DNA from: Tepidiformaceae bacterium
GTDB lineage: Bacteria; Chloroflexota; Dehalococcoidia; Tepidiformales; Tepidiformaceae
NCBI GenBank assembly: GCA_958295975.1
Contig: OY282446.1
Coordinates: 1,155,289-1,219,288 of the forward strand
Direction of reading: 5' to 3'
Length of the DNA: 64,000 nucleotides
Part shown: piece by piece, positions 35,274-49,070 of the stretch
Layout: each line of letters opens with the position of its first letter
How positions within the stretch are numbered: position 1 is the first letter of the stretch
Position numbers and translations under genes: made by a program
Notes under the pieces: model-generated
The model's database searches: none
What the model was told of the DNA's origin: nothing
The model's input: the letters and a program-made list of their open reading frames with translations, nothing else

Positions 35274-36323
35274 ATGGACAATCGTTCGGGTTCGCACGAT
35301 GCATTCGTCCGGGGCTCCCTTGCGCTTGCGTCTCGCGGAGACGTTGGGGAGGACGCTCCGGGCGGGATGAATGCCGATCCCCGTGTCATCACCGAAGCCC
35401 TTGCCATCCGGCAGCGAAATCTGGGTTGGCGCACCGACCGGCGCATCCCCGACTGGGTCAATCCGGAATACGTTGGGTTGGACCAGTTCTTCACGCGCCC
35501 CGAGATCGCGCGCGAGTGCTACCGCTCGCTCCTGTACTGGATGGAGCACGACGGGGCGAACGAGGCCAACTATCGGTTCATCGAACCCGCCGCCGGGATG
35601 GGCGCTTTCTATGACCTGCTGCCCTTCGGTCGCCGCACTGGCGTGGACATCATGCCGTTCCGCGACGAGTACCACCGGATGGACTTCCTCGCCTGGCACC
35701 CACAGCAGGACGGCTATCGTCAGGCCGTGGTGGGCAACCCGCCCTTCGGCTACCGCGCCTGGCTGGCGTTGGCATTCGTCAACCACGCCGCCACGTTCGC
35801 GGACTACGTGGGGCTCATCCTGCCGATGGCCTTCCAGAGCGATGGGAAGGGAAGCCCCAAGCACAGGGTCGAAGGCCTGCGGCTGGTTCACACGGAGCAC
35901 CTGCCGCAGGCCTCTTTCGTCGATGTGCTGGGGAATCCCAGGAAGATCAACGCCCTGTGGCAGGTTTGGCAGCGCGGCGTCAACAACGCGAAGAACGCCG
36001 CAACCTGCGATCAGTGGCTGGATCTGTTCACGGTCGATAATCGCAAGGAGCGCCTCTGTGGCCAGGAGCGAATGGGCGATGCAGACTATTTTCTGCAGCG
36101 TACATTTTACCAGGATCCGCCGTCGCTGGTCAGGAATTTTTCGGAGGTCCGCTATGTTTGTGGGTACGGCATGGTTATCAAAAAAGACAGAGAAGAAGTA
36201 CTCGACGTCCTGCAAAGGGCAGACTGGAAAAAATACAGCAACCTTGCCGCTCATAATTGCAGGCATATCAGTATGTATCATATTCGAAAAGTCCTTACCG
36301 ATGCCGGGTTTATCGATGCCTGA
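35274..36323 (+). CDS. Type II DNA N6-adenine methyltransferase
   Basis: 349 residues. SAM motif I is in RFIEPAAGMGAFYDLLPFGR, and the catalytic motif is AVVGNPPFGYRAWLALAF. The order motif I then NPPF and a long C-terminal region (about 230-349, probable target recognition) fit an amino-methyltransferase of gamma-like order. A later ATG at 35367 could also start it. The last 8 nt overlap the putative nuclease gene, giving a compact M-R operon. Base composition falls sharply in the last 250 nt, which suggests acquisition. Confidence 0.85.
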   Translation: MDNRSGSHDAFVRGSLALASRGDVGEDAPGGMNADPRVITEALAIRQRNLGWRTDRRIPDWVNPEYVGLDQFFTRPEIARECYRSLLYWMEHDGANEANYRFIEPAAGMGAFYDLLPFGRRTGVDIMPFRDEYHRMDFLAWHPQQDGYRQAVVGNPPFGYRAWLALAFVNHAATFADYVGLILPMAFQSDGKGSPKHRVEGLRLVHTEHLPQASFVDVLGNPRKINALWQVWQRGVNNAKNAATCDQWLDLFTVDNRKERLCGQERMGDADYFLQRTFYQDPPSLVRNFSEVRYVCGYGMVIKKDREEVLDVLQRADWKKYSNLAAHNCRHISMYHIRKVLTDAGFIDA

Positions 36324-36843
36324 TGCGTATGACATACTGCTCGATGTCCTTGAAGGCTATACTGACGATGATAAGTGGGTCGGTGCACCCTTTGAGAACA
36401 TCAAGCGGATCTCCAACACCCTCGTGGGGTCTGTTGGACAGGATTTTGTCGAGAATCTGTGTATTGAGATGGGGTTCGCCATCGAATTCCCCACGGGCGC
36501 TCGCGGAAAGCGGTCGCCGACTTCGCCGTGGGACATTAGGATCGAGGGCGTTTCGTTCGAAGTCAAGACGGCAACCGAGGACGTCCACCGGAACTTCCAG
36601 TTCAACCATGTTCGATATCACCGGGAGTATCAGGCGCTGCTGTGCGTTGGCGTCGGGCCGGACACGATCCTGTTTGGGGCATGGTCGAAGGCGGAAGTGG
36701 CGACGGGCGCCGCCGGGCATCTGGTCACGATGGACAAGGGCTCGTCCGCGACGTTCAAGCTCACGAAGCGCATCGTGCAGTTGCACCCGATCGCGGAATT
36801 CGAGCAGCGTATCCTCGATCTGGTGGCCGAACTCGCTCCATAG
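36316..36843 (+). CDS. Putative type II restriction endonuclease
   Basis: 175 residues. SPWDIRIEGVSFEVKTATED has the arrangement of a PD-(D/E)XK active site (D ... E-V-K), preceded by VENLCIEMGFAIEFP. No homologous enzyme comes to mind by name. The assignment relies on that motif plus overlap with the adenine methyltransferase upstream. AT-rich N-terminal third like the end of the methyltransferase. Recognition site cannot be deduced. Confidence 0.75.
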   Translation: MPDAYDILLDVLEGYTDDDKWVGAPFENIKRISNTLVGSVGQDFVENLCIEMGFAIEFPTGARGKRSPTSPWDIRIEGVSFEVKTATEDVHRNFQFNHVRYHREYQALLCVGVGPDTILFGAWSKAEVATGAAGHLVTMDKGSSATFKLTKRIVQLHPIAEFEQRILDLVAELAP

Positions 36844-37414: not shown

Positions 37415-38974
37415 TCAGTCGAGCGCGACGAAGCCGATGGTCTCGGCCCAGCGCCCCTCCCCCACGACCTCGCCGTCGAGCAGCACGGCGCAGAGGTGAC
37501 GGGCGCCGCAGCTGATGCTGGCGCGCCCAGTCGCGGTCTCGGGCGCGTAAGCTGACGGGACGAACTCCGCATCGGCAGGGAGCGGAGTGAACTCGCCGCT
37601 GAGATTGAACACTCCCCAGGGCTCGCCCTGATAGCCGAGGGCGACGCTGAAGGCGGTCTCGTCCGTATTCCAGGCCAGCAGTACTTCCGGCGGGCCGACG
37701 GCATGGATGAACGTGTTCCAGAAATGCCGCAGATCCCGAAGGTGGTCGTCGAAACGCGGTTCGCTGCTGTCGACACGCAGGATCTCCTCGCCCGACGGAA
37801 GGGCGAACAGCGCCAGCGTGACGTCGATCGGCGGGGCGGTTCTGAACGAAACGATGACGTTCCCGCCGCTGGGCGAGACATGGATACCCAAGTCGTCCCT
37901 TTCTTCGGCGAGCAACAGTCGGGACTGCCCGTCGGGCGTGACGTAGCGGACCGTCCCGCCAACGCGGACGACGAAGCCGCCACGTGCGGGCCACACCGCG
38001 GGCTCCTCGTCGCGGTAGCGGTAGTCGAAAGCTCGCCAGCTGCGCCCCGTCCCCTCGTCGTACACCATGACGCGCCGGATCGGGAGAAAGCGCTCGCTGC
38101 CGTCGTCCGCGTCCACCACGAGCTCGTACCCGCCATCGTCGGACCAGGCCAGGAACGGTCCCGCCAGATCCGGGGGCGGGGGCGGATCCGGAGGGCTGGG
38201 GGAGGGCCGGGGCGAGTCGAGAAGCCTGGTCTCGCGCAGCGCCAGCGGTTCGGCGAGTTCGATGACGCCGACGGCCTCGACCACGCCGTTCTTCCATACG
38301 GGGCGGCCCTCGTAGACGAGACTGCAGGACTGCGCCGAGCCGCTGCCGCACCCCCGCGCGAGCAGGCGCGTCGCGTTCATTCGCAACCGGTACCAGGCAG
38401 CCGGGGTGGGCCGCTCCGTTTCCCCCGATGCGATGTCGAGGATGGCGGGGCTCCCCTCCACGAGCGTATCTCCCGCGTCCTCCTCCCACAGCGGGATCGC
38501 GCTGATGGGGATGTCAAGGATGGCGAAGTACGTCGTGGATGCGGTCACTGCGCCCTCCTCAGGTGCGCGTTCGGCCCGAGCCGCGCAGTCGCTGTACGCC
38601 TCCTCATACCAGGCGTACCGGCCAAGGTCGGCCCACCAGCCCAGCCACTGCCAACCGGGCCCGTAAGTATCGTTGCGAAGCGCGATGGACTTATCCTTCG
38701 GGGCCACCACCGTCCGCACGGACCGCTCGCTCTCCGTCTCGATCACGTCAAACCCACTCCAGGTAGCCCATGCCCATCTGCATACTTCTCCGCGGGGCAG
38801 AATGGCGTAGCGGAAGTCGGGTGAGAGGTTGCCCGCGTTGGGTGGGAGCAGGTGGAGTGCGCCGTCCAGCGTGAAGATGCCGGTCCGGCTTTCCCCCGTT
38901 GGCGCATTGCCGACGATGGCGAGCCTGTCGCTGGCGGCGTTCCAGCCCGCCAGCGAGAAGTCCCGTGGATGCAT
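37415..38974 (-). pseudogene. C-terminal part of a frameshifted exported propeller-like protein
   Basis: The 3' portion of a gene whose 5' portion lies at 38975-39842 in another frame. It begins at the break with SLAGWNAASDRLAIVGN, which continues the propeller pattern, and contains LLPPNAGNLSPDFRYAI, GGYELVVDADDGSERFL, WPARGGFVVRVGGTVRYVTP and HVSPSGGNVIVSF, i.e. WD40/TolB-like strands. The last 80 residues include two cysteines. An ATG at 38974 could start an independent 519-residue product, but it lacks a signal peptide. The total length 37415-39842 is 3n+1, which fits one extra base. Confidence 0.75.
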
Positions 38975-39842
38975 CCGGCAGCAGCGCGGCCAGCTCCGTC
39001 TGGCCATCGACGCGCAGCAGCGCCTCGCCCGTAGGCGTGTCCAGGACGGTGAGCGCGCCATCCTCCTCCATGACCGCCACCTTCGCGCCGTCGGGCGAGA
39101 CCTCGACCTCACGAATGCCCTCGCCCTCGTACAGCACCGCCCCGCTCCACCCGTCCAGCCAGACGCGGCGCACCTGCCGTTCGTCCCAGACGATGAGGCG
39201 CTCGCCCGCCGTCAGCACGCCGCCCGGCCAGCCGGACTGGTGCTCGAAGGCATGCCAGTATCTGTCCGTGGTGGTGTCGAGCACATACACGTCCCGCGCC
39301 CGCCCCCAGCCCCCGGCGTCCGTCCATATCTCGCCCGATTCGGCGGTGAAGACGGCCAGCGGCCCCGCGACGCTCACCGATGGCCGCGTCGGGAACGAGA
39401 ACTCCACGGTCACGGCGTCCGCGCGCTCGTAGCGCTCGTAGGCGCGCATGGCCAGCGGCTCGTTCACCGTGCGCCAGCGCCCGCCTTCGGGGCGCACGCT
39501 CAGGTAGAGCCGCGCGGGGTCGGCCACGGAGCGCCAGACGACGGCCTCGACCGTGGCCTCCTCTCCACCCGCCAACGGCACCGTGAGAGCCACCGCCCCG
39601 CTGCGCCGGAAGCGCCCCGACGCGCTCGTGGCGGACAGGTCCAGCGCCGCCGCGTCGCGCCGCCACAGCCCGTCCATCTCGCGCGCGCCCACGTACAGCT
39701 CGCCGTCGCCGTCGAGCGCGCGCCACACCGTCACCTCCACCGTCGCGCCGACTTGGGGCGTGCTGGCCGTGGCCGCGCCGAGCGCGATCACGCCCGCCAG
39801 CGCCGCCGCGAACCCCGCCGCCATCGTCCAGCCCCGCGTCAT
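38748..39842 (-). pseudogene. N-terminal part of the frameshifted exported protein, with two VWR-type domains
   Basis: ATG 39842 gives a signal peptide or anchor (MAAGFAAALAGVIALGAATA). Two VWR-type modules follow: TVEVTVWRALDGDGELYVGA with SGRFRRSGAVALTVPL (about 33-90), and TVEAVVWRSVADPARLYLSV with GGRWRTVNEPLAM (about 95-150). A propeller region then reads VSPDGAKVAVMEEDGALTVL. Near residue 290 (38975-38960) the sense frame ends and an Arg/His-rich nonsense tail runs to a stop at 38748. The next frame picks up the propeller, so one base is inserted in the gene or in the assembly. Confidence 0.78.
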
Positions 39843-41717: not shown

Positions 41718-41759
41718 ACTCGCCCATGATAACAGACGTCCGCGCCCCCGGAAGCGCGC

Positions 41760-42572
41760 CTATGCCGGAGTGGGCATGGCGGCGTGGTCCATGCGCTGGC
41801 CGCCCGCGCGCACGAGCGTCTCGTTCCCGACCGTCCACGTTCCGGTCTCGAGCACGAACAGGGGCCGCCCGTGGCGCAGCGCGCGTCGTCCAGCGTCCAG
41901 CGTGCCGCCCCGCTCGCCCGCCTCGATCAGGGACATCGCTTGGGAAAGGAGCACGATCGTCTCGTTCCGCTGCATCGCCTGCCAGGCCCGCCAGCCCGCC
42001 GAGGGCCGGAACTCCGAGAGCACGAGGAGCCGCCCGTCCGCGACCGCCGGCGCCAGCCCTTTCAGCGTCCAGCGCTCCCAGCCCTCGGCGAGGACGCCGA
42101 TGGCGGCGCCGCCGGCGTCGAGCGCGGCCCGCGTCGCCTCGCGGTCGACGCCGCGCGCCATCCCCGTGACGAGCACCGTGCCATCCCCGGCGGCCTGCTC
42201 TCCGACTTCGGTGGCCACGCGCAGCCCCTGCGGGCTCGCGTTCCGCGAACCGCAGAGTCCGACGGCCCACCGCCGGAGCAGGCTGGCGTCCCCCCAATGC
42301 CACAGGATCGGCGGAGACGCCTTGTGCGCGCGCAACGCATAGGGGTAGTCGGGCGACTTGAAGGTCAGCGGCGCGAAGGGCAGGGCGCCGTCGGGCGACG
42401 GGGGCAGGGCGCGCGCGCTCAGCTCGCGCAGTTCCGCCAGCGGGAGCGTGTCGTGCAGCTCGCGCCAGTCGCGCGCGGTGCGGGGCAAGGCGTCCGGAAG
42501 CGTCTCCGGCAGGCCCGCGTCGTAGGGCGTGCGCGGCGGCTCGCTGAAGGAAAGCTGCTGCCTCGTGCTCAT
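41760..42572 (-). CDS. DprA-like Rossmann-fold protein
   Basis: 270 residues. The region 85-260 has the DprA/Smf order: YPYALRAHKASPPILWHWGD, VGLCGSRNASPQGLRVATEV, VLVTGMARGVDREATRAALD, AIGVLAEGWE, LLVLSEFRPSAGWRAWQAMQ and RNETIVLLSQAMSLIEAGER with GGT, then GRPLFVLETG. Compared with housekeeping DprA it lacks the N-terminal SAM-like part and the C-terminal winged helix. DprA proteins bind single-stranded DNA and load RecA. The gene follows the phosphoribosyltransferase gene by 8 nt. A competence role or a defence role are both possible. Confidence 0.82.
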   Translation of the reverse strand: MSTRQQLSFSEPPRTPYDAGLPETLPDALPRTARDWRELHDTLPLAELRELSARALPPSPDGALPFAPLTFKSPDYPYALRAHKASPPILWHWGDASLLRRWAVGLCGSRNASPQGLRVATEVGEQAAGDGTVLVTGMARGVDREATRAALDAGGAAIGVLAEGWERWTLKGLAPAVADGRLLVLSEFRPSAGWRAWQAMQRNETIVLLSQAMSLIEAGERGGTLDAGRRALRHGRPLFVLETGTWTVGNETLVRAGGQRMDHAAMPTPA

Positions 42573-42580
42573 GGCGTACC

Positions 42581-43399
42581 TCACGCTCGGTGATGATGAT
42601 TCAGGCTCTTCGTCACGGGCAGCGCAAGGATACGCTCCGCGCCGAGCGCTCGACACTGGCGAGTGAGATCGCGAATCGTCCCACCCGAGCCGTAGAGGTC
42701 GTCGACGATGAGCACACTGCCGTAAAGGGAATCGGCTCGCACAATAATACTGTTCCTCCTACGCTCGCACAGTTCCTCGAATTGCAAACCAGATTCAGAA
42801 GCATCCTTTTGGCTCGAAATCTCACGGATATTTTCCGTCGTAACAACAGGAATATTCATCCAATATCCCAGAGTATAAACCATCCATGCTATAAATCCAA
42901 CACTGGAAGGAGGAGAAGCGATGTAGCTAATGCTACTCATCTCACTGTGTGCTTGTAGCATATCGTACATATTATTCGCCAGAGCGAGAGCTGCATTACG
43001 TTCGGGAATCTCTTGTTTGGCAAGATTCCTGAGCTGACCGATCTTCGTCGCGTTGGCCGGCGGGCTGCCGGACCTTGGATCCATATGCCAGTCCAGCGCG
43101 AGGCAGATATCGGGACACTCTTCGCTATCGTCCGTGTGGACGATGTGAAGAGCGTTCATCACGGTACGCACCCGTTTCTCATGGGTCATGTCCAGCCCCC
43201 TGATCGAAGCGTAGCGCTGTTCTCCCTCGATGAACCCGATTTCGACTTCGGTGTCGAACGCATGGCTGAACGCTTGCGCGAACCGCCAAGCCAGTTCAGG
43301 CCTGTACGGAGCCTCACTTCGGAACGCGACGTGAATCCCATCCGCCTCCGGGCGAATCTCGATACCCTGCGGCCTGATGACATACGGTTTCTCACGCAT
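42581..43399 (-). CDS. Phosphoribosyltransferase-like protein paired with the DprA-like gene
   Basis: 272 residues. The PRPP-binding motif is SVLIVDDLYGSGGTIRDLTR near the C-terminus, followed by CRALGAERILALPVTKSL, as in ComF-like type I PRTases. Upstream core strands are SYIASPPSSVGFIAWMVYTL and NIPVVTTENIREISSQKDAS. The first 130 residues (AYRPELAWRFAQAF-type helices and a conserved IVHTDDSEECPDICLALDWH) are not a known domain to me. No zinc finger, unlike ComFC. The 3' half is AT-rich compared with its neighbours. TACATT lies 9 nt before the ATG. The partner downstream is DprA-like. Confidence 0.78.
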   Translation of the reverse strand: MREKPYVIRPQGIEIRPEADGIHVAFRSEAPYRPELAWRFAQAFSHAFDTEVEIGFIEGEQRYASIRGLDMTHEKRVRTVMNALHIVHTDDSEECPDICLALDWHMDPRSGSPPANATKIGQLRNLAKQEIPERNAALALANNMYDMLQAHSEMSSISYIASPPSSVGFIAWMVYTLGYWMNIPVVTTENIREISSQKDASESGLQFEELCERRRNSIIVRADSLYGSVLIVDDLYGSGGTIRDLTRQCRALGAERILALPVTKSLNHHHRA

Positions 43400-43450
43400 C
43401 GCGAAACGAATGTACGCCTTCGCCGCGCCATGCGCCAGCGTCCGCGCTGC

Positions 43451-45774: not shown

Positions 45775-45833
45775 GCACACTGGCACCGGTCGGGGGATGA
45801 AAATCCGCCCGCCGTCCCCCTAGCATGGGGCGC

Positions 45834-48800
45834 ATGGAGCGCAGAGGGCGCGGCAGGCCCCGCCATCCCGGCATCCTCACGCCCGCCGAACGGCGCGTGC
45901 TCGCCGAACTCCGCCAGGGCGGCACCAACGCCGAGATCGCCACGCGCCTGGGCATCGGCGCGGAGACGGTCAAGAGCCACCTCTCGACCATGCTCTCGAA
46001 GCTGGGCCTCTCGGACCGCCAGCAGCTGGCGGCCTGGCGCGAGCCTCCGCGCGAGCGGCGGCGTCCGTGGCGCTGGCTGTTCGCGCCGCTGGCCATGCCC
46101 CTGAAGGTGGCGGGCGGCATCGCGGGCGGGACGGCGGTCGTGGCCGCCATCGTCGTCGCCGTCGTGCTGACGCTCCCCCGCGACCCCGAGCCGGAGCTGC
46201 CCCCCATCGCGCCGACCGCCACTGCGACGGTTACGCCGACCGCCACCGCGCCGCCCACGCCCACCGCGACGCTCGCGCCCACGCCCGTGGACCTGGCTGA
46301 TGCCGTGGCCGTGAGCCTGGGCGTCGCGCATACCTGCGCCATCGGCGAGTCCGGCGAGGCGGTCTGCTGGGGGAACAACGAGTACGGCGAGACGGACGCG
46401 CCCGCCGGAACCTTCCGTTCCATCAGCGCGGGCGGCGCGCACACCTGCGCCATCGGCGAATCCGGCGAGGCGGTCTGCTGGGGGAACAACGACGCGGGGC
46501 AGACGGACGCGCCCGCCGGAACCTTCCGTTCCATCAGCGCGGGCGTCGCGCATACCTGCGCCATCGGCGAGTCCGGCGAGGTGCAGTGCTGGGGGAACAA
46601 CGACGCGGGGCAGACGGACGCGCCCGCCGGAACCTTCCGCTCCGTCAGCGCGGGCCTTGGCTATGCCTGCGCCATCGGCGAGTCCGGTGAAGCCGTTTGT
46701 TGGGGCGAAGACATCGCCTACCGGTTGGCGGTGGAGCGCTGCGGGATGTCGGGGCTGAACACGCGGGAATGTATCGACGGGCAGCGCGAGGAATTCATGC
46801 CCACCGGAGCGTTCCGCGGCGTGAGCGCGGGCCCGTTTCACACCTGCGCCATCGGCGAGTCCGGCGAGATGCAGTGCTGGGGATCGAACGAGTACGGCCA
46901 GACGGACGCGCCCGCCGGAACCTTTCGTTCCCTCAGCGCGGGCCGGTTTCACATCTGCGCCATCCGCGAGTCCGGCGAGATCGTCTGCTGGGGAAGGAAC
47001 GCCTACGGCCTGCGGGACGCACCGGCCGGCGCCTTCCGCTCCGTCAGCGCGGGCGTGCTCCACACCTGCGCGGTGCGGGAATCGGGCGGGATCGCGTGCT
47101 GGGGGGACGCTGATGCAGTCGCCGAGGCGCCGCCGGACCTGCGCCCGGCCAAGACGCCCGCGCCCGTGGCCACGGCGCCGCCACGCGCGACCGCTACGCC
47201 CGTGGCGACGCCGGAGCCGGACGGCCCCATCGCCCTCAGCGCTGGCGGCGGCCAGACCTGCGCCATCCACGAATCGGGCGAGATCAGCTGTTGGGGAAGC
47301 CGGGCAAGCCGGGCCTTTGCCGGCCTGGGTCCGCCGCCGGGGGAGTACCGCTGGGTGAGTGTGCGCGAACGAGAAGCCTGCGCGATCCGCCAGTCGGGAC
47401 AATTGGTCTGCTGGGGGGTCGACTTCTGGCGCTATGGAGAGGAGCCGTCGGCCGCCTACCGCTCGCTGGGCTGGATCGGGCAGAATGCCGTCTGCGCCCT
47501 GCGCGAAACCGGCGAATTGGACTGCTGGAGCATTTTGACTGGCCCCTTTGTGCCGGGCTGGAACTACCGGCCGCCGTACCGTTCGCTCGTCGGCCTTGGT
47601 ACATCCCTGTGCGGCCTGCGGGAGACCGGGGCGGTGGACTGCTGGGGAGCCGGCCTCCCTTCTGCCCAGCGGGACGCGCCCCCCGGCGTCTGGCGCTCCC
47701 TGAGCGTTGGCGGCGCGTACGGCTGCGGTCTGCGCGAGACGGGCGAGGTGCAGTGCTGGGGATCGAACGAGTACGGCGGGACGGACTCGCCCTCCGGAAC
47801 CTTCCGCGCCGTGAGCGCGGGCGCACTGCATGCCTGCGCCCTGCGGGAATCGGGCGAACTCGCCTGTTGGGGAGCGGACGGGTACGGCCAGACGGATGCG
47901 CCAGCGGGAACCTTCCGCTCCGTGACCGCTGGCCTCTTCCACACCTGCGCGCAGCGCGAATCCGGGGAACTCGCCTGCTGGGGGCTGAACGACGAGGGGC
48001 AGGCGGACGCGCCCGCCGGAAGGTTCCGCCCCATGATCGCGATGGGATACTCCCACACCTGCGCGGTGCGCGAATCGGGCGAGATCGCGTGTTGGGGGAG
48101 CGCCGATGAGGCAGCCGTCCCCGATCCTCCGCCGATGCCCCTGCGGGCCATCGCCGTGACCACGGGCGATTCGTTTAGCTGCGCGCTGCGTGAATCGGGC
48201 GAGGCGCTTTGCTGGGGTGGGGATGCGGAGGTGCGGGCAACCGGGATCCACGAGCCGCCGGATGGGGAGTTCCGCGCGATCGGCGCCATCCAGTCCGGTG
48301 TCTGCGCCATCCGCGCATCGGGCGAGATCGCCTGCTGGGGCAGGACGGGCCCCTGGGATTTCTATGAGATGAAGCCCTTGCCGGGGGGTGAACCGCCGTC
48401 GGGGCGCTATCGTTCGCTGAGCGCTGGCACGAGCCACTTCTGTGCGATTCGTGAATCGGGAGAGCTCACCTGTTGGGGGAACTATGAGGAGGGCCAGACG
48501 GATGCGCCGACTGGCCGCTTCCGCACCGTGAGCGCGGGAGCCCGGCACGCCTGCGCCATTCGCGAATCCGGTCGCGCATCCGGCGAGCTGGCCTGCTGGG
48601 GGTGGAACGAGTACGGCCAGGCGAATGCACCGGCAGGCGTTTTTCGCGACGTCGGTGCGGGCTACTACCACACCTGCGCCATCCGTGAATCCGGCGAGGC
48701 GGTGTGCTGGGGCTGGGACAGCGACGGCCGGCTGGATGTGCCTGTCGCCGAAATCTACGAGATGGTCTGCGAGCCTCAGGAGGTCGGGCAGCGCTGCGAG

Positions 48801-49070
48801 TGGACCAGGACGGGCGACGACCCGGATGGATACCGCTTCCGTGCGGTGGCCGCGGGCCACCGCACGACATGCGGGATCCTCGAATCGGGAGCGGTGCTCT
48901 GCTGGGGGGACGAATCGGGAGCGGCTGACGACCTGGCGGGGTTCCGCTTCCGCTCGCTGAGCGCCAGCCTCGAAAACCACTTCTGCGGCATCACGGAACT
49001 GGGCCGGGTGCGCTGCTGGGGAGGCGGCAACTACGGCAAGACGGACGTCCCGGAGGAGCCCCGCCCCTAG
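45834..49070 (+). CDS. Membrane LuxR-type HTH protein with 22 extracellular RCC1-like repeats
   Basis: 1078 residues. The cytoplasmic N-terminus is a LuxR/GerE DNA-binding domain (LTPAERRVLAELRQGGTNAE, IATRLGIGAETVKSHLSTML). One membrane helix follows (GGTAVVAAIVVAVVLTL), then a Thr/Pro/Ala spacer. The rest is 22 repeats of about 38 residues with consensus HTCAI.ESGE..CWG.N..G, then DAPAGTFRS.SAG, each with two cysteines. A second Thr/Pro spacer separates repeats 1-7 from 8-22; seven blades make one RCC1 propeller. I prefer ATG 45834, 7 nt after TAGCAT; the ATG at 45825 overlaps that hexamer. A one-component receptor that binds DNA inside and a ligand outside is the simplest reading. Confidence 0.85.
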   Translation: MERRGRGRPRHPGILTPAERRVLAELRQGGTNAEIATRLGIGAETVKSHLSTMLSKLGLSDRQQLAAWREPPRERRRPWRWLFAPLAMPLKVAGGIAGGTAVVAAIVVAVVLTLPRDPEPELPPIAPTATATVTPTATAPPTPTATLAPTPVDLADAVAVSLGVAHTCAIGESGEAVCWGNNEYGETDAPAGTFRSISAGGAHTCAIGESGEAVCWGNNDAGQTDAPAGTFRSISAGVAHTCAIGESGEVQCWGNNDAGQTDAPAGTFRSVSAGLGYACAIGESGEAVCWGEDIAYRLAVERCGMSGLNTRECIDGQREEFMPTGAFRGVSAGPFHTCAIGESGEMQCWGSNEYGQTDAPAGTFRSLSAGRFHICAIRESGEIVCWGRNAYGLRDAPAGAFRSVSAGVLHTCAVRESGGIACWGDADAVAEAPPDLRPAKTPAPVATAPPRATATPVATPEPDGPIALSAGGGQTCAIHESGEISCWGSRASRAFAGLGPPPGEYRWVSVREREACAIRQSGQLVCWGVDFWRYGEEPSAAYRSLGWIGQNAVCALRETGELDCWSILTGPFVPGWNYRPPYRSLVGLGTSLCGLRETGAVDCWGAGLPSAQRDAPPGVWRSLSVGGAYGCGLRETGEVQCWGSNEYGGTDSPSGTFRAVSAGALHACALRESGELACWGADGYGQTDAPAGTFRSVTAGLFHTCAQRESGELACWGLNDEGQADAPAGRFRPMIAMGYSHTCAVRESGEIACWGSADEAAVPDPPPMPLRAIAVTTGDSFSCALRESGEALCWGGDAEVRATGIHEPPDGEFRAIGAIQSGVCAIRASGEIACWGRTGPWDFYEMKPLPGGEPPSGRYRSLSAGTSHFCAIRESGELTCWGNYEEGQTDAPTGRFRTVSAGARHACAIRESGRASGELACWGWNEYGQANAPAGVFRDVGAGYYHTCAIRESGEAVCWGWDSDGRLDVPVAEIYEMVCEPQEVGQRCEWTRTGDDPDGYRFRAVAAGHRTTCGILESGAVLCWGDESGAADDLAGFRFRSLSASLENHFCGITELGRVRCWGGGNYGKTDVPEEPRP

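What the first reader, a model, noticed from the sequence alone, without database searches (positions are those of the whole stretch)
41760..43399. Candidate new system: phosphoribosyltransferase-like plus DprA-like gene pair
Two coupled genes, 8 nt apart, code a ComF-like PRTase with a novel N-terminal domain and a shortened DprA-like protein without winged helix. Both families handle DNA uptake in competence, yet neither is the usual full-length form. The PRTase gene is AT-rich and lies between native genes. This could be a nucleotide- or DNA-sensing defence module, or a divergent competence unit.
Basis: inference. Interest (0 to 1): 0.65.

Follow-up and report, generated by a model that had tools for sequence, protein, structure and literature searches.

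The report
Helicase-less PRTase–DprA toxin–antitoxin pair
Two coupled bacterial genes encode a probable self-poisoning enzyme and its DNA-binding keeper, a stripped-down relative of known phage-defence pairs, and in a related genus the enzyme appears to be swapped together with only the first quarter to third of its keeper, which points to where the two proteins recognise each other.

Summary
A 272-aa phosphoribosyltransferase (PRTase) gene and a 270-aa DprA-like gene without winged helix lie 8 nt apart at 41760-43399 (minus strand). They are not this genome's competence genes: a full-length DprA with winged helix and a normal ComF lie elsewhere.

It is not a new kind of system. The pair belongs to the known PRTase + DprA toxin-antitoxin/anti-phage class (ShosTA, PsyrTA, RqlHI). 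The DprA-like protein matches PsyrA at 8e-51. The PRTase domain is closest to the PRTase tail of PsyrT, but the RecQ helicase is missing and an ~88-aa domain without a Pfam match takes its place.

A class-wide search found 15 further such PRTases, 16 with the window. All 16 sit directly upstream of a DprA-like gene at coupling distance; none of four ComF controls does.

In the window species the pair is a bare ~1.7-kb insertion; seven of eight congeners have the empty site, and the eighth is unresolved.

In a related genus the PRTase varies together with the first ~64 codons of its DprA partner, but not with the rest (r = 0.92 versus 0.06). This suggests where the partners recognise each other.

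Defence function is inferred by homology. The pairs are not enriched near other defence genes.

The parts
42581..43399 (-). PRTase gene (T), 272 aa; putative toxin/effector
   Evidence: invariant G121, K128, D233, D234, K264 across 16 homologues
43136..43399 (-). N-terminal domain of T (residues 1-88), no Pfam match, predicted beta-beta-alpha-beta-beta-alpha at low confidence; takes the place of the RecQ helicase of PsyrT
42605..43135 (-). PsyrT/ComF-type PRTase domain of T (residues 89-265)
   Evidence: hhalign with Chloroflexota RecQ-PRTase E 6.5e-26, RqlH 1.4e-18, ComF 1.1e-16, ShosT 5e-10
42677..42715 (-). PRPP-binding loop VLIVDDLYGSGGT (T residues 229-241)
41760..42572 (-). DprA-like gene (A), 270 aa; putative antitoxin/sensor, no winged helix
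   Evidence: PADLOC PsyrA 8.3e-51, ShosA 1.2e-31; Pfam PF02481 only plus SLOG cluster
42369..42572 (-). N-terminal extension of A (residues 1-68) before the Rossmann core
   Evidence: alignment; the Pfam match starts at residue 69
41742..43441 (.). approximate extent of the ~1.7-kb insertion that carries exactly the pair; flanking genes are 87-135 nt apart in 7 congeners

Best explanation
The pair is a mobile two-gene toxin-antitoxin-type immunity module of the PRTase + DprA class (ShosTA/PsyrTA/RqlHI), in a helicase-less form. Shown: gene layout, coupling, co-occurrence, intact PRPP loop, species-specific gain, and linked variation of T with the start of A in a related genus. Inferred: A (SLOG/DprA Rossmann protein) binds T and holds it inactive or undoes its damage; A also senses abnormal or single-stranded DNA such as phage replication intermediates; on infection T is freed and uses PRPP to upset purine-nucleotide pools or modify nucleotides, which causes DNA damage and stops the infected cell. 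Partner specificity probably lies in the N-terminal quarter to third of A, because this part varies with T across allele types while the C-terminal part does not.
For: A matches PsyrA (8e-51) and ShosA (1e-31), and T matches the PRTase end of PsyrT. Profile comparison puts T closest to the RecQ-PRTase of PsyrT in the same phylum, and those RecQ-PRTase genes also have a DprA gene next to them. 16 of 16 short-PRTase loci have A directly downstream with ORF spacing -11 to +11 nt. T and A evolve together (Mantel r 0.69, p 2e-4). Other PRTase-DprA pairs lie on phages and plasmids beside Kiwa, BREX and type I R-M genes. Empty site in 7 of 8 congeners. In one related genus, T and the first 64 codons of A change type together at a fixed site with ~83-92% identical near flanks, while the rest of A stays 88-93% identical for three of the four type II genomes; T versus A_N r 0.92 (p 0.003), T versus A_C r 0.06 (p 0.30). 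Literature: DprA+PRTase protects E. coli from T7 and lambda (PMC9122126); the RqlH PRTase domain is genotoxic, its PRPP-site mutants are not, and RqlI binds it (PMC4670107); ShosT is reported as PRTase and pyrophosphatase that disturbs purine pools, ShosA as DNA-binding (review PMC12593503).
Against: No defence or toxicity was measured. PADLOC hits among neighbours are no more frequent than in random control regions. Expressed alone, the RqlH PRTase domain was not toxic; other parts of RqlH were needed (PMC4670107), so a helicase-less T may need its new N-terminal domain for toxicity or may act otherwise. PsyrTA gave no phage protection in one native-host study (PMC12409345). T in this family is fast evolving and only 18-24% identical between the window and the other pairs. 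The linked variation may reflect a single exchange event.
Confidence: 0.62

Rival explanations
1. A purely selfish addiction (toxin-antitoxin) cassette without an anti-phage role, kept by post-segregational killing and moving between species.
For: Bare two-gene insertion with no other cargo; no defence-gene enrichment around the pairs; patchy spread, 16 of 393 class genomes with a true family member.
Against: Addiction alone does not predict a fixed chromosomal site across a genus with exchanged alleles; relatives have measured anti-phage activity (PMC9122126).
Confidence: 0.18
2. A housekeeping DNA-repair or nucleotide-salvage pair: the PRTase recycles bases and the DprA-like protein guides recombination.
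For: Both parent families (ComF and DprA) handle DNA and nucleotides; the A core keeps conserved DprA-type residues.
Against: Absent from most relatives; T is fast evolving and exchanged as alleles; the genome keeps its own DprA and ComF.
Confidence: 0.1
3. A divergent natural-transformation unit.
For: ComF and DprA kinship of the two proteins.
Against: Canonical ComF and DprA exist elsewhere in the genome; no competence genes next to the pair; no winged helix in A; species-specific insertion.
Confidence: 0.05

Closest known systems
PsyrTA / RqlHI (RecQ-PRTase + DprA-like antitoxin)
   Same: PRTase domain of the same subfamily (hhalign 6.5e-26 and 1.4e-18), A matches PsyrA at 8e-51, same gene order T then A, coupled genes
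   Different: No RecQ helicase; a new ~88-aa N-terminal domain in its place; A is shorter than the RqlI homologue (270 versus 462 aa)
ShosTA (DprA + PRTase of P2-like and Pf phages)
   Same: PRTase + DprA two-gene layout without helicase; A matches ShosA at 1.2e-31
   Different: The Pf-phage ShosT carries a HAD domain and zinc ribbons; its PRTase part is more distant (5e-10); PADLOC reports no ShosT match for this T
Type III-A retron PRTase effectors
   Same: PRTase as putative effector with a DNA-binding partner (PADLOC 0.028, weak)
   Different: Borderline match only; the partner found here is DprA-like, and no reverse transcriptase gene was noticed near the window pair (retrons were not specifically searched)
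ComF (competence PRTase)
   Same: Same PRTase superfamily, QK and DD loop motifs, hhalign 1.1e-16
   Different: No N-terminal zinc ribbon; always paired with a DprA-like gene; the genome's own ComF is a separate gene

Membership tests
PRTase + DprA (ShosTA/PsyrTA-class) toxin-antitoxin pair | PRTase gene and DprA-like gene adjacent, same strand, coupled | tested here: met
   Window, 15 further short-PRTase relatives and the Chloroflexota RecQ-PRTase loci
PRTase + DprA (ShosTA/PsyrTA-class) toxin-antitoxin pair | Intact PRPP-binding loop in T | tested here: met
   VLIVDDLYGSGGT, D233 and D234 invariant in 16
PRTase + DprA (ShosTA/PsyrTA-class) toxin-antitoxin pair | T toxic alone, A neutralises | not testable with these tools
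   needs expression experiment
PRTase + DprA (ShosTA/PsyrTA-class) toxin-antitoxin pair | Anti-phage activity | not testable with these tools
   needs phage challenge
PsyrTA proper | RecQ-family helicase fused N-terminally to the PRTase | tested here: not met
   T is 272 aa; no helicase domain
PsyrTA proper | PsyrA-type DprA-like partner | tested here: met
   PADLOC PsyrA 8.3e-51
ShosTA proper | ShosT-type PRTase | tested here: not met
   no ShosT model among PADLOC hits at E<=1; PRTase closer to PsyrT than ShosT
Canonical competence DprA | C-terminal winged helix (DprA_WH) | tested here: not met
   only PF02481 and a SLOG model match; own full-length DprA does have DprA_WH
Canonical ComF | N-terminal four-cysteine zinc ribbon and no DprA neighbour | tested here: not met
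   N-term of T lacks it; own ComF has it; DprA neighbour in 16/16 versus 0/4

The most novel reading that the evidence does not exclude
A helicase-independent lineage of PRTase-DprA immunity in which a new small N-terminal domain replaces RecQ as the regulatory part, and in which the toxin and the N-terminal quarter to third of its DprA-like keeper form one exchangeable specificity cassette placed onto a constant keeper core, so that the toxin changes while the DNA-sensing core stays.
Probability: 0.4. Interest if true: 0.62.

Novelty: new variant of a known kind. Interest (0 to 1): 0.5.

Why it matters
How a DprA-like protein restrains a PRTase toxin, and what it senses, is still largely open (PMC9122126, PMC4670107). 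A natural form without the helicase cuts the system to its minimum, and the linked variation at the 'SGYAKGVD' motif of A gives a ready-made map of the partner-recognition region that can be tested by making chimaeras in a laboratory host. PADLOC gives only a weak PsyrT match for this T, so surveys relying on the helicase-bearing or ShosT forms may undercount such pairs.

Tried and rejected
Defence-island association: 78 neighbours of the pairs against 75 random proteins from relatives; PADLOC hits were not more frequent near the pairs, so the claim was dropped. Competence unit: rejected after finding separate full-length DprA and ComF. Fold of T: AlphaFold with one and with three sequences gave mean pLDDT 41 and 53; Foldseek gave PRTases as most of the top matches but nothing under E 0.001; the fold of the N-terminal domain is left open. 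Relatives in viral contigs, phage and plasmid records for T: none found. Target-site duplication: only a CGTCCGCGC-like match seen by eye near both ends, too short in this GC-rich DNA to claim. Promoter and terminator scan: none found. Family search with the ShosA model was useless since it matches nearly every DprA.

Full report
Check of the observation. The PRTase gene (T) covers 42581-43399 on the minus strand (272 aa) and the DprA-like gene (A) 41760-42572 (270 aa), with 8 nt between stop and ATG. A matches Pfam DNA_processg_A over residues 69-244 and has no DprA winged-helix match. T has an intact PRPP loop (VLIVDDLYGSGGT) but scores below the Pfam gathering value; it and its 15 homologues all match Pribosyltran. 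T is AT-rich (GC3 0.61) and A has genome-like composition (GC3 0.93); in the 15 other pairs the two genes are close in composition, so in the window T and A may have separate recent histories (inference).

Not the competence genes. The genome holds a second, full-length DprA (403 aa, with DprA_WH) and a normal ComF with zinc-ribbon cysteines at other places.

What family it is. PADLOC models name A as PsyrA (8.3e-51) or ShosA (1.2e-31) and T as the C-terminal PRTase part of PsyrT (1.3e-5). Profile comparison of the 16-member T family ranks the RecQ-PRTase of Chloroflexota first (E 6.5e-26, columns 89-260), then RqlH (1.4e-18), ComF (1.1e-16), ShosT (5e-10). So T is a PsyrT-type PRTase without the RecQ helicase; residues 1-88 match nothing in Pfam. 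PsyrTA, RqlHI and ShosTA are known toxin-antitoxin/anti-phage pairs: DprA+PRTase protects against T7 and lambda (PMC9122126); the RqlH PRTase domain is genotoxic, needs its PRPP site and is bound by the DprA-like RqlI (PMC4670107); ShosT is reported to disturb purine pools (review PMC12593503).

Co-occurrence. A first search of 400 genomes of the phylum gave four relatives of T besides the window; all four have a DprA-like gene next door, three of them with a RecQ-PRTase and one short like the window. A profile search of 393 genomes of the class splits cleanly: 16 loci at E <= 3e-16 and ComF-like matches at E >= 4.6e-10. All 16 have a DprA-like gene directly downstream on the same strand with ORF spacing -11 to +11 nt (start codons chosen by me); none of four ComF-like loci tested does, and no DprA-like gene occurs among 237 proteins of control regions. 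T and A distances correlate (Mantel r 0.69, p 2e-4), with T evolving faster (window versus G546: A 50%, T 22% identity). Pairs with RecQ, HAD or bare PRTases also occur on plasmids and phages, some beside BREX pglX, type I R-M or Kiwa genes.

Mobility. In the eight other genomes of the genus the two flanking genes are conserved. In seven they are 87-135 nt apart; in the window genome the gap is 1749 nt. In the eighth (G580) both contigs end at this spot, so it cannot be judged. Alignment shows that flanking intergenic sequence resumes on both sides of the pair. The pair is thus a ~1.7-kb insertion without further cargo; the mechanism is unknown.

Between type I (G218, G455, G487) and type II (G515, G564, G388, G579) T is only 27-30% identical, and DNA identity falls to ~45% from ~90 nt upstream of T to codon ~64 of A, then returns to 80-100% in G388, G515 and G579. 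The C-terminal part of A is 88-93% identical between G218/G455 and those three; G564 and G487 have more divergent C-terminal parts (0.61-0.72). Over all 21 genome pairs T identity correlates with the N-terminal part of A (r 0.92, p 0.003) and not with the C-terminal part (r 0.06, p 0.30). Recombination is the simplest reading of so sharp a step; the number of independent events is unknown and may be one. The inference is that the N-terminal quarter to third of A is the part that must match T.

Negative results. PADLOC hits near the pairs (one Hhe/PDC-S37-like helicase by G487, one mads2, and the R-M pair in this window) are not more frequent than in random regions. Structure prediction stayed at low confidence, with Foldseek giving mostly PRTases.

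Mechanism (inferred). A binds T and keeps it off or repairs its damage, and senses abnormal DNA through its DprA/SLOG core; phage replication disturbs A, and T then consumes PRPP or alters nucleotides, damaging DNA and stopping the cell. Steps shown are the pairing, the intact catalytic motif, the gain by insertion and the linked variation; toxicity, sensing and defence are taken from the relatives and were not tested. A caution is that the RqlH PRTase domain alone was not toxic (PMC4670107) and that PsyrTA showed no protection in one native-host test (PMC12409345).

Verdict. Real, co-evolving, mobile two-gene module; a new variant (helicase-less, new N-terminal domain) of a known kind.

Noticed in passing
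window 35274-36843 (+): Type II restriction-modification pair (MTase_II 7.5e-53, REase_II 1.4e-11) in an AT-rich stretch, about 4.9 kb from the PRTase-DprA insertion.
   Followed up: partly
L009, L070-L072, L074-L076 (genus g22): PRTase gene and first ~64 codons of the DprA-like gene occur as two allele types at one fixed site, with the rest of the DprA gene near-identical in most genomes.
   Followed up: yes
L108 and L109 (G580 contigs C55 and C81): Both contigs end in the same intergenic spot where the window species carries its insertion; perhaps another insertion there.
   Followed up: no
window 37415-39112 (-) and 45825-49070 (+): Proteins with RCC1-like repeats on both sides of the pair; the second begins with a LuxR-type helix-turn-helix by sequence.
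   Followed up: no
L071 14010-18578 (-): 1522-aa protein matching PDC-S37/Hhe (5e-279), a candidate defence helicase, 3 kb from the G487 pair.
   Followed up: no
L043 2252-3939, L044 2285-3933, L045 2300-3951: DprA-like gene followed by a PRTase-like gene of a divergent type on a Gordonia phage and on actinobacterial plasmids, reverse gene order; a possible further branch.
   Followed up: no
window 41760-43399: Strong composition mismatch between the two coupled genes (GC3 0.61 versus 0.93), not seen in the 15 other pairs.
   Followed up: partly
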